From positions 1 through 60,746 of the forward strand of contig CAIVEC010000036.1 of assembly GCA_903904875.1 (NCBI GenBank): 60,746 bases of DNA, read 5' to 3'. The notes under the pieces were generated by a model. It searched no databases, was not told where the DNA came from, and was given only the letters and a program-made list of their open reading frames with translations. The stretch comes from an uncultured bacterium. GTDB taxonomy: Bacteria > Patescibacteriota > Gracilibacteria > Absconditabacterales > Absconditicoccaceae. This document shows positions 7,217 through 60,746 of the stretch, piece by piece; position 1 is the stretch's first letter, and every line of letters starts with the position of its first letter. A program made the translations under genes and the position numbers.

Positions 7217-8581
7217 CTAGACGTTAAGTTGACTAAGATTTTTGGAAACGGTATTCAAATCTATCTTATCGTATCTCTGCATAAGCATATCTGTTTTGAC
7301 TTTACTTATGATATCCTGCACCACTCATACGATGATGATGACTCCGGATCCGGTGACGACCACAGGAAGCGATCCGAGCGATTGGACCAGCGTCTGGATG
7401 AATGGGATATAATTGAGAAGATAACTATACACGCCGATAAACGCCAATCCAGCTCCTCACCAGAGGCAAAGATGCATCAGGATTCCGTTGATATATTTTG
7501 CTGTCTCTTTTCACGGTCTGATACCAGGCACGAATCCTCCTCTTTTCTGGATATTATCAGAGATCCTTTCCGGAGAGAATACGATCAAGGTATAGAAGAA
7601 CGTAAACACGATGATCAATATGAAATACAGGACGATAGCAGGGATTCCTGGTTGCTGGGTATAGATATTGAGGTTCGCCTCTATCCGGTTCGCCATACCG
7701 ACTAATCTGGTATTCATAGGCTGGAATTGGGTAATAAGTTTGGATAATAAGTATGGGAATGAGACGAATGCGATAGAGAAGATGATAGGCACCATTCCTA
7801 CGGGATTCATCGGGATAGGGAGTGAAGACGATTCTTCAACTCTTCCTCTTCTCGCATAAATAACTGGTATCTCTTTGATGGATTTAAGGATGAAGATAGA
7901 AAGCAGAACAAGTCCAAGCACGATAATCAGCATAAATAACGTAACTCATATAATACTAGATGATCACGCCATGCTTGAATAGATTTTTTGGGTGATTCCG
8001 GATACGATGGATGCGAAAATCAAAAGAGATATTCCATTGGAGATACCGTGTTCCGTGATCAATTCTCCTATCCGCATCAGCAATACTGATCCCACCGTCA
8101 TCGTAAACGCAGTGACGATAAGGCTCAATGGTGCTGTACTAATCACATGTCCTCAAAGGAGATAATTGATGAAAAACACCATTCCGATAGATTGGAGAAA
8201 TGCTAATGGTACAGAAAGATATCTTGTATATTGTTGGATTTTCTGTTGTCCGGTTTCACCGAGTTCAGTAAGCTCTTCAAGTTTTGGCACTACTGAACCG
8301 AGAAGCTGCATGATGATCGATGCATTGATGAAAGGAGCTAATCCTACAGCGATGATAGCAAATTCTTTCAATGATCCTCACAAAAGCATGACAAAGTATC
8401 ATAATCAAGAATCAGCAGTAGTGCTCATGGTTTTGGACATAAGTGTGGTGATATTTACAAACGGCACAGGAATGAACACCAAAAGCCTATATAACGCAAG
8501 CATTACTAACGTGAAAATGATTTTCTTTTTTATTGTAGGATTTTCTCGTAATTCTTGAACTTTTTTTAAGAATTTTTCCAT
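7217..8581 (-). CDS. secY: Protein translocase subunit SecY
   Basis: SecY is the pore subunit of the Sec translocon in the cytoplasmic membrane. The 454-aa length is normal for the family. Recognisable blocks include ASIIMQLLGSVVPKLEEL, the second-helix region with GISNGISLLIF, and YARRGRVEESSSLPIPMNPV in the C5 loop that contacts ribosome and SecA. Gly residues in TADSGLGYFV and MLLGGSLKEF are encoded by UGA. The ATG at 8581 gives the expected short cytosolic N-terminus. It is the last gene of the tuf-S10-spc superoperon, immediately after rplO, the usual bacterial position. No adk, map, infA or rpmJ follows. Confidence 0.97.
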
Positions 8582-8613
8582 CAAAAGGGGGATAAGAGAC
8601 TTAAAAAGTAGTG

Positions 8614-10629: not shown

Positions 10630-11175
10630 CTATTTTTTAGCTGCTTTACCTGGTTTGAGCTTGATATATTCGTCGAAATATCTGATTCATTTTCCTTTGT
10701 ATGGTTCTGGCTTTTTGAGTGCTTTCACTTTGGCAGCATATTCTCAAAGATATTGTTTGTCGATGCCATTGAGCGTGATGATAAAATTTCCTTTTACATC
10801 TTGTTCTACTTTTGCTTCGATGCTTTGCGGGATATCAAAGTTTATTTTATGAGATAATCCTAATGAGAAGATGAATTTTTTGCCTTCCATCTTGACCACA
10901 TATCCGACTCCCATCACCAAAAGTTTCTTTTCATATCCTTTGGTTACACCTTCGATCATATTTGCAAGCAACGTTCTAGAGAGCCCCCGAAGATTTCGTT
11001 GATCTTCGTTTTCTACAGAAGTGATTGCTTGAGTGCCTTCAACCTTGATAGTAACGCCTTTTACAAACGTATGAGAAAGCTGCCCTTTAGGACCTTTTAC
11101 ATTCACGGTAGAACCATTGATTTGGAGTTCTACTCCAACAGGTATTTCTATGACTTTTTTTCCGATTTTTGACAT
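10630..11175 (-). CDS. rplF: Ribosomal protein uL6
   Basis: Large-subunit protein L6, 181 residues, normal length. The start is placed at the ATG for MSKIGKKVIEIPVGVE, the conserved N-terminus, rather than an upstream in-frame ATG at 11205. The C-terminal L6 signature EPYKGKGIRYFDEYIKLKPG is present, with one glycine from UGA. It lies between rpsH and rplR in canonical order. Confidence 0.96.
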
Positions 11176-14310: not shown

Positions 14311-14979
14311 TTATAAGTGTATTTTCTTATTAACATTGGATTGTGATTTATTGTAGAGGATTCCTTTTTCGATCCATACCTTCACTCCGAGCATTCCGTA
14401 TTTTGTCCTTGCCTGAAGATAATAATAATCGATATCTGATCTGAATGTCTGGAGGGATACTCTTCCTTGAATAAATTTTTCTGTCCTTGCAATATCTGTT
14501 CATCCGAGTCTTCCACCGACTTGAATTTTGATTCCGGAAGCTCATTTTTCCATGACTTTCTGTAAAACATTTTTTGCGACTTTCCTGAATGGCATTCTTG
14601 CTTCGAGTTGTGAAGCGATAAATTCAGCCATGATCTTTGCAGATAATTCAGGAACCTTTACTTCCTTGATAATGACTTTCATATCTTTGCCGAATTTCTT
14701 TTTCAACGCTTCTTCGAATTCCTTGATTTTAGCTCATTGCTTGCCCATCAACACTCCGACCTTTGAAGAGAATATAATAATTTCTCACTCTTTAGCGGTT
14801 TTTCTGATAACCACTTTTGAGATACCTGCTCTAGGAAAAGTTTCGTCGACAAATTTTCTCATTTTGATATCTTCAACGAAAAAATCTGCTCCTGTTCTCT
14901 GTTGTTTAGCGAACCATTCTGCAGGTCGTGATTTCATTATTCCTACTCTCATTCCGATTGGCTGAGCTTTTGATGCCAT
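14311..14979 (-). CDS. rpsC: Ribosomal protein uS3
   Basis: Small-subunit protein S3, 222 residues, part of the mRNA entry site. It begins [15 protein letters not shown], contains the KH-domain stretch [18 protein letters not shown] and the signature [20 protein letters not shown], then [20 protein letters not shown]. Several of these glycines are UGA. It starts 6 bases after the rplV stop. Length is normal. Confidence 0.96.
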
Positions 14980-15398: not shown

Positions 15399-15656
15399 TT
15401 AGAATGGATGTCCTCTGAATGTCCTTGTAGGGACGAATTCTCCTAATCTATGACCGATCATATCTTCTGTCACATAGACACTTATAAATTGTTTTCCATT
15501 GTGGACAGCAAAGGTCAATCATATCATATCAGGAACTATTTGACATGCCCTATCCCGCACTTTGATGACTTTCTTATCTCCGGCTTCATTCATCTTTTTT
15601 ACTTTGATAAGTATTTTTTCGTTCACGTAGAATCATTTTTTTAGTGATCTTGTCAT
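15399..15656 (-). CDS. rpsS: Ribosomal protein uS19
   Basis: Small-subunit protein S19, 85 residues, in the 30S head. The block [18 protein letters not shown] and the end [14 protein letters not shown] are typical. The codon CGG at 15555-15557 falls where the family has the Trp of ...TWSRRS..., giving [13 protein letters not shown], strong support for CGG read as Trp. UGA supplies the glycines in LKKGFYV and MIGLTF. Confidence 0.95.
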
Positions 15657-32557: not shown

Positions 32558-32631
32558 GGGGCGTTAGTGTAGTGGTAACACAGCAGTCTTCGGAACTGCC
32601 ATCAGGGGTTCAAATCCCTTACGCCCTGCCA
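32558..32631 (+). tRNA. tRNA with anticodon UCG, probable tRNA-Trp reading CGA/CGG
   Basis: Cloverleaf with acceptor GGGGCGT/ACGCCCT, D-stem GTGT/ACAC, anticodon stem GCAGT/ACTGC, loop CTTCGGA (anticodon UCG), T-loop TTCAAAT and encoded CCA. By anticodon it would be tRNA-Arg. However, discriminator G73, U72 and the acceptor sequence closely match bacterial tRNA-Trp (E. coli AGGGGCG...CGCCCCTG), and D-loop position 20 is U, not the A20 that marks tRNA-Arg. Together with CGA/CGG at conserved Trp sites this fits a Trp-charged tRNA. Charging is inferred, not shown. Confidence 0.75.
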
Positions 32632-32633
32632 TA

Positions 32634-32674
32634 ATAAAGGGCAGGTTTACCCGCCACGGTGGGCCTGAGTTTAG
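32634..32674. other. GC-rich hairpin after the UCG tRNA
   Basis: CAGG, then CCCGC-CACG-GTGGG, then CCTG form a hairpin directly downstream of the tRNA. It may be a remnant of a palindromic element or part of a processed transcript. Confidence 0.35.
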
Positions 32675-40561: not shown

Positions 40562-41701
40562 TTATTTCTTGAGCATTTTCGCTTTCCAATCCTCCACGAT
40601 CTTGTGGAGATACACGATATTATGCAGTGACAGAAGGATGCCTCACAGCATCTCTTTTTCGTTTAACAGATGATGGAGATAGGCTTTGGTGAAATTTTGG
40701 CACGTGTAGCATCAGCAATCTGAAGTAAGTGAAGTGAAATCTTTGCTATATTTCGCGTTGGATAATTTTATATTTCCGTCAGCTGAAAACGCTTCGCCAT
40801 GCCTGCCCAATCTCGTAGGCAGCACGCAGTCGAACATATCGAATCCTTCTTCGATGGCATGCGTGATGTCTTCAGGAGTTCAGACTCACATCAAGTATCT
40901 TGGCACATTTGTTGGCAACTTGGATGCAGTGAATGCCACCACTTCGCGGATAAGCTCTTTGCTTTCTCACACGCTCACACCACCAACAGCGATTCCGTCT
41001 AATGCGTACGTACTAAGGACGTCGATGGATTCTTGCCTTAAATCTAAATAGGTTCATCATTGTACGATAGGGAACAAAACCCCCTTGGATTTTTTATATT
41101 TCGGGGTGAAATGATCAAACGCTCTCTTGGCTCGACGATGGGTTATCTGCATATGTTCGTTTATCGTTTTTCTATCAGCGCCAGCCGGTGAGCAGACATC
41201 GAGCATCATCATGATATCGCTTCACAGATTGCATTGGATATCGACGACGCCTTCAGGAGTGAATTCGTGCTTGGAGCCGTCATACGGCGAACGGAAATTT
41301 ACGCCTTCCTCGGTCAGCTTCATTTTGATTTCATGTTGGTCTTCTGGTCATTCGCGGGAATCTGTTTTTCAAAGTCATAAAGAGAATACCTGGAATCATC
41401 AACTGTCAGTCAGGATAAGTTTATCTCGGTTTTCAAATTTGTGGAGTCCTCATGCCGCTTTAATCAGCTCGTCACCGGGGCGTAAATACAAATGGAAGGT
41501 ATTCGCGAGTATCAATTGGATCTGTGGCAAATCTCAGATATATTTTGAATCTTTGAGCATATCGAGAATCATTCACTTGATGGTCGCCTTGGTGCCGACC
41601 GGCATAAAAACCGGGGTTGTCAAGGTGATTCCGTTGAGGGTGATCTGTCAAACTCTTGCATTTCACTTCTGTTTGAGTATCTTAAAATCAAGTTTAGACA
41701 T
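40562..41701 (-). CDS. tgt: tRNA-guanine transglycosylase
   Basis: Exchanges guanine for preQ1 at the wobble position of tRNAs with GUN anticodons. The 379-aa length is normal. Motifs: [20 protein letters not shown] (catalytic Asp and substrate site; Trp is CGA at 41426-41428, GG is UGA-UGA), [61 protein letters not shown] (nucleophile Asp) and the zinc site CGCYTC with the downstream AYLHHL. All key residues are present. No queuosine synthesis genes lie nearby, so preQ1 may be scavenged; that is inference. Confidence 0.95.
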
Positions 41702-48715: not shown

Positions 48716-49264
48716 TTATATGGTCATGATTTCATCAGACTTGTTTTTGACGAGTTCATCGACTTTGTCGTTCATGGTTTTGACTAATGCGTCGATTTCT
48801 CTCTCATTTCTTTTGCTTTCGTCTTCACCGATCTCTTTGGCGTCGAATACAGCCTTATTATCTTTCATTGCTTCCTGTCTCGCCATCCTGATACGACCTT
48901 TGACGTCTTCACCCATAGCTTTCACTTGCTTGGTGATTTCCGTTCTTCTGTCTTGGGTCAACGCAGGGATTTTTACGATAACATAACTTCCTTCATTTTG
49001 CGGAGTCAATCCTGCATTAGCATCATAAATAGCTTTTTCTACATGTTTGAGTTCGTTTTTATCTCGTGGTTCTATTTTTATTGTTTGTCCATCCATGATG
49101 GTTACGTGAGCAATCTGAGGGATTTTCATAGGTCCGTATGACGCCTCCACGGTGATGTTTTCAACTAATCACGCTGAAGCTCTTCCTACTTGCAAAGCTT
49201 TGAGTTCTCCCAATAGATGTTGGATAGCTTTGTCCATTTGTTGACTATGTGTATTCAAGTCCAT
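48716..49264 (-). CDS. frr: Ribosome recycling factor
   Basis: RRF splits post-termination ribosomes together with EF-G. The 182-aa length is normal. Motifs: LKALQVGRASAGLVENITVE (canonical ..R.GRAS..LL..I.V, Gly by UGA), TIMDGQTIKIEPRDKNELKH, ALTQDRRTEITKQVKAMGED and the terminal DALVKTMNDKVDELVKNKSD. The start at 49264 gives MDLNTHSQQMDKAIQHL. It precedes yidC in one likely transcript. Confidence 0.95.
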
Positions 49265-56898: not shown

Positions 56899-58429
<1,531 letters not shown>

Positions 58430-58458
58430 CCATGCTTTATCTCTTTTTAATGCTATTA
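58430..58458 (-). other. 16S rRNA processing stem, 5' arm
   Basis: Complement of 56842-56871. Forms the base of the pre-16S loop with the 3' arm. Confidence 0.8.
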
Positions 58459-58544
58459 ATGATCACACGCGTAGCTGAATCGATCGATAAGCGAAATATT
58501 AGGATAGTTGAGATGGGATAATTGGGGTGAAGAGTTTAATCTCA

Positions 58545-58572
58545 TCTATCACAACGAAATCGCGTATTGCAA
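58545..58572 (-). promoter_or_regulatory. Possible separate 16S promoter
   Basis: On the minus strand TTGCAA (58567-58572), 16-base spacer, GATAGA (58545-58550), between 5S and the 16S leader. The spacing matches other promoters here, the -10 box is weak. Confidence 0.35.
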
Positions 58573-58593
58573 TTTGACCTATTCATCTACTGT

Positions 58594-58714
<121 letters not shown>

Positions 58715-58789
58715 TAGAGTAAATGAAAATCCTACTATAATGAAGAGGTTATTTAGTACAATAGTATGATATATTACGTTCAAAAAAAA

Positions 58790-60746
<1,957 letters not shown>

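What the first reader, a model, noticed from the sequence alone, without database searches (positions are those of the whole stretch)
32558..32631. UCG-anticodon tRNA that looks like a tryptophan tRNA
The anticodon reads CGA (and by wobble CGG), nominally arginine. Discriminator G73, U72 and the GGGGCG/CGCCC acceptor resemble bacterial tRNA-Trp, and position 20 is U rather than the A20 of tRNA-Arg. It is a direct candidate for the adaptor behind the CGA/CGG change. Such a tRNA could have arisen from tRNA-Trp by anticodon mutation, with TrpRS having to accept a changed anticodon.
Basis: partly seen in the sequence, partly recalled or inferred. Interest (0 to 1): 0.85.

Follow-up and report, generated by a model that had tools for sequence, protein, structure and literature searches.

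The report
Tryptophan-like tRNA reading arginine codons
This bacterium, a member of the Absconditabacteria, reads two codons that normally mean arginine as tryptophan; the tRNA in this window is very probably one of the two adaptors that do it, as already described for this group, and the enzyme that loads it appears to have altered its anticodon-reading pocket to match.

Summary
The tRNA is real: 32558-32631 (+), anticodon UCG, G1:U72, G73, U20. The window lies in an Absconditabacterales/SR1-type genome that reads UGA as Gly. I tested what CGA and CGG mean by aligning about 0.8 Mb of this genome to two outgroups with those codons masked. CGA aligns with Trp 44 times and Arg 7 times, CGG with Trp 62 and Arg 3; the control UGG gives Trp 61 and Arg 2, and CGU gives Arg 95 and Trp 0. 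Both codons therefore mean Trp, each about as common as UGG. All 24 family relatives of the tRNA that I read have R1, G73 and no A20. An anticodon-masked tree puts them with tRNA-Trp, apart from tRNA-Arg. Shulgina & Eddy (2021) already reported CGA/CGG=Trp with Trp-type tRNAs for this clade, so this is a new member of a known kind. One addition I did not find published: the single TrpRS keeps the residues that read G73 and C35, but has lost the Ser227 contact to A36 (kept in 2/18 versus 28/30 outgroups) and has Lys for Gly271 at the position-34 site (17/18). This fits an enzyme accepting CCA, CCG and UCG anticodons. Charging itself is untested.

The parts
32558..32631 (+). tRNA gene, anticodon UCG, predicted tryptophan acceptor (tRNA-Trp-type, reads CGA and by wobble CGG); 3' CCA encoded
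   Evidence: ARAGORN; Rfam 64.9 bits; family alignment and tree
32590..32592 (+). anticodon U34 C35 G36 (followed by G37 at 32593)
   Evidence: sequence; ARAGORN
32627..32628 (+). U72 and discriminator G73 (partner G1 at 32558): tryptophan-type acceptor end
   Evidence: sequence; identity elements as in PMC8629427 and PMC9976931
32576..32576 (+). position 20 is U, not the A20 of bacterial tRNA-Arg
   Evidence: sequence; own tRNA-Arg(GCG) and (CCU) carry A20
32642..32667 (+). terminator-like hairpin with T-rich tail just after the tRNA
   Evidence: pattern scan, 4 found versus 0.4 expected in the region
15555..15557 (-). CGG codon in the uS19 gene (15399-15656) at a position that is Trp in both outgroups (IKTW motif)
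   Evidence: Pfam S19 score rises from 114.8 to 118.7 bits when CGA/CGG are read as Trp
14926..14928 (-). CGA codon in the uS3 gene (14311-14979) at a position that is Trp in both outgroups
   Evidence: gene identity
8072..8074 (-). CGG codon in secY (7217-8584) at a position that is Trp in both outgroups
   Evidence: SecY 265.2 to 271.9 bits when read as Trp
41132..41134 (-). CGA codon in tgt (40562-41701) aligned with Trp; a second one at 41426-41428
   Evidence: TGT 426.8 to 436.8 bits when read as Trp
49064..49066 (-). CGA codon in the ribosome recycling factor gene (48716-49264) aligned with Trp
   Evidence: RRF 155.1 to 161.8 bits when read as Trp

Best explanation
The gene encodes a tryptophan-accepting tRNA with anticodon UCG. 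The genome's single TrpRS charges it with Trp, and it inserts tryptophan at CGA and, by wobble, CGG. A second Trp-type tRNA (CCG) also reads CGG, and the ordinary tRNA-Trp(CCA) reads UGG. Arginine is left to CGU/CGC (tRNA-Arg GCG) and AGA/AGG. The tRNA descends from a tRNA-Trp whose anticodon changed before this family diversified. TrpRS adapted by keeping G73 and C35 recognition and relaxing its contacts to positions 36 and 34. Shown: the tRNA, its identity elements, the Trp meaning of both codons, the grouping with tRNA-Trp, and the TrpRS substitutions. Inferred: the charging, the wobble, and that the TrpRS changes are what permit charging.
For: Codon meaning: CGA W 44/R 7 of 122, CGG W 62/R 3 of 139, UGG W 61/R 2 of 136, CGU R 95/W 0 of 162. 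Where both outgroups agree: CGA W 7/R 1, CGG W 12/R 0. Window genes show it too, and Pfam scores rise when the codons are read as Trp. tRNA: G73, G1:U72, no A20; all 24 relatives keep R1 and G73. Tree: UCG+CCG+Trp group 100/90, Arg apart 99/99; the closest tRNAs from other families are tRNA-Trp(CCA), 70%. TrpRS: one gene; Gln152, Glu155, Thr225 and Lys274 kept, Ser227 lost in 16/18, Gly271 replaced by Lys in 17/18, and outgroup-conserved anticodon-site columns changed more often than others (5/9 versus 11/85, P 0.006). Published for this clade: PMC8629427.
Against: No charging data. The anticodon holds C35 and G36, which are arginine identity elements, and G73 is tolerated by ArgRS, so only the lack of A20 argues against mischarging. 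CGA shows slightly more Arg than UGG does (7/122 versus 2/136). Of the 12 Arg-aligned CGA positions before the identity filter, 3 come from an antisense-rRNA artefact. The UCG+Arg tree is not formally rejected (p 0.12). Ser227 is retained in two of 18 family members, one of which (G158) has a Trp-like CCG tRNA.
Confidence: 0.88

Rival explanations
1. Ambiguous decoding: TrpRS is the main charger, but ArgRS also charges this tRNA to a useful extent through C35, G36 and G73, so CGA in particular is read as a mixture of Trp and some Arg.
For: The arginine anticodon elements are present. CGA has a little more Arg than UGG (7/122 versus 2/136), and one uL6 CGA is Arg in both outgroups (10996-10998).
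Against: Arg is not the second-ranked residue at CGA or CGG (Phe and Tyr rank higher at both, as at UGG). CGG shows no Arg excess (3/139). A20 is missing, while the genome's own tRNA-Arg(GCG) and (CCU) have it.
Confidence: 0.08
2. It is an ordinary tRNA-Arg(UCG) that merely resembles tRNA-Trp, and CGA/CGG still mean arginine.
For: The anticodon is that of arginine, ARAGORN labels it Arg, and the AU test does not exclude grouping with tRNA-Arg (p 0.12).
Against: CGA and CGG align with Trp, not Arg. No A20. The tRNA is only 39-58% identical to the tRNA-Arg in the set but up to 70% identical to tRNA-Trp.
Confidence: 0.02
3. The CCG tRNA does the decoding and the UCG tRNA is a marginal or decaying gene.
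For: Some genera of the family lack a detectable Trp-like UCG tRNA but have CCG, or lack both.
Against: CCG cannot pair with CGA by normal rules, yet CGA is used 28 times per 10,000 codons as Trp. The UCG gene is structurally intact, encodes CCA and is conserved in most of the family.
Confidence: 0.02

Closest known systems
CGA/CGG to Trp reassignment with UGA to Gly in Absconditabacteria (Shulgina & Eddy 2021, PMC8629427)
   Same: Same clade, same codons, same amino acid, same tRNA type (G73, not A20, A/G1:U72), UGA=Gly as well.
   Different: Here CGA (28), CGG (31) and UGG (30 per 10,000) are about equal, an advanced stage that the paper reports for one genome only. The TrpRS pocket change is not mentioned in the parts read.
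CGG to Trp in Anaerococcus and in Bacilli of order RFN20
   Same: An arginine codon read as Trp by a tRNA with Trp identity elements.
   Different: Those involve CGG only, via tRNA CCG, with tRNA UCG absent; here both codons and both tRNAs are involved.
Bacterial tRNA-Trp(CCA)
   Same: G73, R1:U72, C35, fold, and closest sequence outside the UCG set.
   Different: U34 and G36 instead of C34 and A36; G37 instead of A37.
E. coli TrpRS-tRNA-Trp complex (PMC12135181)
   Same: G73 contacts (Gln152, Glu155) and C35 contacts (Thr225, Lys274) are conserved in this family.
   Different: The A36 contact Ser227 and the position-34 neighbour Gly271 are replaced.

Membership tests
Absconditabacterales genetic code (UGA=Gly, CGA=Trp, CGG=Trp) | UGA read as glycine in frame | tested here: met
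   UGA aligns with Gly 545 of 857; TrpRS gene has 5 in-frame TGA
Absconditabacterales genetic code (UGA=Gly, CGA=Trp, CGG=Trp) | CGA and CGG read as tryptophan | tested here: met
   with UGG, CGU, CGC and AGA as controls
Absconditabacterales genetic code (UGA=Gly, CGA=Trp, CGG=Trp) | Belongs to Absconditabacteria/SR1 by relationship | tested here: met
   The nearest titled TGT relatives include SR1 bacterium LacPavin (80%) and Absconditabacterales SKYG23 (60%); one close hit (81%) is titled Gracilibacteria
Absconditabacterales genetic code (UGA=Gly, CGA=Trp, CGG=Trp) | tRNA-Gly(UCA) gene | tested here: inconclusive
   Not found among 35 tRNAs; the assembly is 87% complete and also lacks tRNA-Ala, tRNA-Tyr and tRNA-Arg(UCU)
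bacterial tRNA-Trp (tryptophan acceptor) | Discriminator G73 and A/G1:U72 | tested here: met
   sequence; G73 and R1 conserved in all 24 relatives read, U72 in most
bacterial tRNA-Trp (tryptophan acceptor) | Anticodon C34 C35 A36 | tested here: not met
   U34 C35 G36: only C35 is kept, so this is a Trp-type tRNA with a changed anticodon, not a canonical tRNA-Trp
bacterial tRNA-Trp (tryptophan acceptor) | Common descent with tRNA-Trp | tested here: met
   starred group of UCG, CCG and Trp, 100/90; resolution limited by 73 columns
bacterial tRNA-Trp (tryptophan acceptor) | Charged with Trp by TrpRS | not testable with these tools
   needs aminoacylation assays
bacterial tRNA-Arg | A20 | tested here: not met
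   U20; own tRNA-Arg(GCG) and (CCU) have A20
bacterial tRNA-Arg | C35 and G/U36 | tested here: met
   anticodon UCG
bacterial tRNA-Gln | U35 and a weak 1:72 pair of U1:A72 type | tested here: not met
   C35; G1:U72; CGA/CGG align with Gln only 4/122 and 3/139

The most novel reading that the evidence does not exclude
In this family one TrpRS has been re-tuned in its anticodon pocket (Ser227 lost, Gly271 replaced by Lys, Asp226 often replaced) so that it charges three tRNAs with anticodons CCA, CCG and UCG while still rejecting tRNA-Gly(UCA). This would be the synthetase-side step of a natural sense-codon reassignment.
Probability: 0.55. Interest if true: 0.6.

Novelty: new member of a known kind. 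Interest (0 to 1): 0.45.

Why it matters
Sense-codon reassignments in bacteria are few and recently found. This genome has both adaptors, and its reassigned codons are as frequent as UGG. The synthetase carries defined substitutions at the sites that would be expected to change. That makes the charging step directly testable with one recombinant enzyme and three transcripts. It also means the window's proteins must be translated with CGA/CGG as Trp; by the usual code-25 translation about two thirds of their tryptophans appear as arginine.

Tried and rejected
A first count gave CGG 14% Arg; removing overlapping wrong-frame matches brought this to about 2%, so that signal was an artefact. Contamination as the source of Arg at CGA: the hits are scattered over many contigs, and three of them come from one antisense-23S reading frame. 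Glutamine as the meaning: Gln is rare at both codons and U35 is absent. A recent duplication of the genome's own tRNA-Trp(CCA): only 63% identical. A single-strand RNA fold does not give the cloverleaf D-arm at minimum energy, which is common for unmodified tRNA and was not weighed. No structure prediction of the TrpRS was run; the pocket comparison rests on sequence alignment.

Full report
OBSERVATION. ARAGORN and Rfam both call a tRNA at 32558-32631 (+) with anticodon UCG. From the sequence: G1:U72, G73, encoded CCA, a D-arm GUGU/ACAC with G18 G19 U20, anticodon loop CU-UCG-GA, 5-bp anticodon stem, T-arm normal. A terminator-like hairpin follows at 32642-32667.

WHERE IT IS. The window is the whole of contig C36 in a 0.97 Mb assembly, 87% complete. 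Its TGT protein is 75-81% identical to genomes that include SR1 bacterium LacPavin, and 54-62% identical to several titled Absconditabacterales or SR1. UGA is used as glycine (UGA aligns with Gly 545/857; 5 in-frame TGA in TrpRS).

WHAT CGA AND CGG MEAN HERE. I translated about 803 kb of this genome with UGA, CGA and CGG masked. I aligned it to proteins of two outgroup genomes of the same class whose TrpRS genes have no in-frame TGA (G046, G103), dropped overlapping wrong-frame matches, and counted the outgroup residue opposite each codon. At 35% identity or more: CGA W 44, R 7 of 122; CGG W 62, R 3 of 139; control UGG W 61, R 2 of 136; CGU R 95, W 0 of 162; CGC R 55, W 2 of 90; AGA R 778, W 1 of 1241. 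Where both outgroups agree: CGA W 7, R 1; CGG W 12, R 0; UGG W 12. In the window itself, Trp positions of uS19, uS3, SecY, TGT and RRF are written CGG or CGA. Pfam bit scores rise when these codons are read as Trp: S19 +3.9, SecY +6.7, TGT +10.0, RRF +6.7; the two main uS3 domains, which do not cover the site, do not change. Usage per 10,000 codons is CGA 28, CGG 31, UGG 30, so about two thirds of tryptophans use the reassigned codons.

THE tRNA SET. The genome has tRNA-Trp(CCA) (AGGGCCG..CGGUCCU-G), a CCG tRNA with A1:U72, G73 and no A20, the UCG tRNA of the window, and tRNA-Arg(GCG) and (CCU) with A20 and A73. In a sample of the same family, relatives of the UCG tRNA were read in 24 genomes. 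All carry R1 and G73, most have U72, and none has A20. The CCG tRNAs of the family also carry A1:U72-type ends and G73. When the UCG tRNA is used as a query outside the family, the best hits (families f21 and f18) are tRNA-Trp(CCA) with the same D-arm type (L063, L064), followed by tRNA-Cys.

ORIGIN. With the anticodon masked, 141 tRNAs give a tree in which a well-supported branch (100/90) holds UCG 23, CCG 23, Trp 16 and two others. The 11 other tRNA-Arg form their own group (99/99) (FastTree version). Forcing UCG with Arg costs 45.9 log-likelihood units, but the AU test on 73 columns gives p 0.12, so this is strong but not formal exclusion. Identity to this genome's own tRNA-Trp(CCA) is only 63%, against 70% to tRNA-Trp of two other families. 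The conversion therefore probably predates the family.

THE SYNTHETASE. There is one TrpRS (C17:3653-4615, -). The E. coli TrpRS-tRNA structure assigns Gln152/Glu155 to the discriminator end (Glu155 to G73), Thr225/Asp226/Lys274 to C35, Ser227 (with the Thr225 backbone) to A36, and the Tyr270/Gly271 backbone to C34 (PMC12135181). Across 18 TrpRS of this family and 30 outgroup TrpRS: Gln152 17/18, Glu155 18/18, Thr225 18/18 and Lys274 18/18 are kept. Ser227 is kept in 2/18 versus 28/30, Asp226 in 6/18 versus 27/30, and Gly271 in 1/18 versus 27/30 (Lys in 17/18). Of 94 columns conserved in the outgroups, 16 are changed in most of the family; 5 of these fall among the 9 conserved columns of the two anticodon segments (P 0.006). 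The loop alignment agrees with that to the solved TrpRS 3m5w (VTDS opposite PTST). The family is one lineage, so these counts are not independent events, and this TrpRS has diverged elsewhere too (for example residues 11-14 and 82-83). The two members that keep Ser227 (G071, G158) are among the four of the 18 in which I found no Trp-like UCG tRNA, which is suggestive only.

MECHANISM. Best reading: TrpRS charges UCG, CCG and CCA tRNAs because it relies on G73 and C35 and has relaxed positions 36 and 34. The UCG tRNA inserts Trp at CGA and, by wobble, CGG. G36-G37 in this tRNA is also the sequence that TrmD methylates (general knowledge), which would help to hold the frame. Because tRNA-Gly(UCA) of this clade would share U34 and C35, its different discriminator (U73, as classified in PMC8629427) would be needed to keep TrpRS off it. 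These last points are inference.

COMPARISON. Shulgina & Eddy (PMC8629427) predicted CGA and CGG to Trp in Absconditabacteria and found tRNAs consistent with Trp identity. A 2026 paper treats it as established for Absconditabacterales (PMC13092985). NCBI is understood to list it as translation table 37 (from memory; not found in the library). The present finding is thus a new member of a known kind, at the advanced stage that the 2021 paper saw in one genome (CGA 30, CGG 24, UGG 35). Two literature searches returned no paper on TrpRS adaptation in this clade; the library is open-access only.

Noticed in passing
window 56902-60746 (-): The rRNA genes lie in the order 23S (cut by the contig end), 5S, 16S in the direction of transcription, which differs from the usual 16S-23S-5S order.
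   Followed up: no
contig C26:27980-28050 (-), L013: A second Trp-like tRNA with anticodon CCG (A1:U72, G73, no A20); in other genera of the family it shares the D-arm type of outgroup tRNA-Trp.
   Followed up: partly
genome G000: No tRNA-Gly(UCA), tRNA-Arg(UCU), tRNA-Ala or tRNA-Tyr was found among 35 tRNAs; probably assembly gaps at 87% completeness.
   Followed up: partly
G071 (single contig, 100% complete, same family): No tRNA matching the UCG or CCG patterns, and its TrpRS keeps Ser227; it may treat CGA/CGG differently or leave them unassigned.
   Followed up: no
family f14 (also in-frame UGA): Only 4 of 25 genomes show a UCG or CCG tRNA by pattern, two of them of tRNA-Arg type with A73: the other UGA=Gly group differs in its use of CGA/CGG.
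   Followed up: no
G165:C15:55901-55932 and G032:C1:259892-259923: A second, divergent CCA-anticodon-loop match in two genomes of the family, not called as a tRNA by ARAGORN; possibly a degenerate or unusual tRNA-Trp.
   Followed up: no
window 10987-10998 (-), uL6: A CGA that is Arg in both outgroups and a CGG that is His in both lie three codons apart in a normally conserved motif; candidate sites for residual or tolerated substitution.
   Followed up: no
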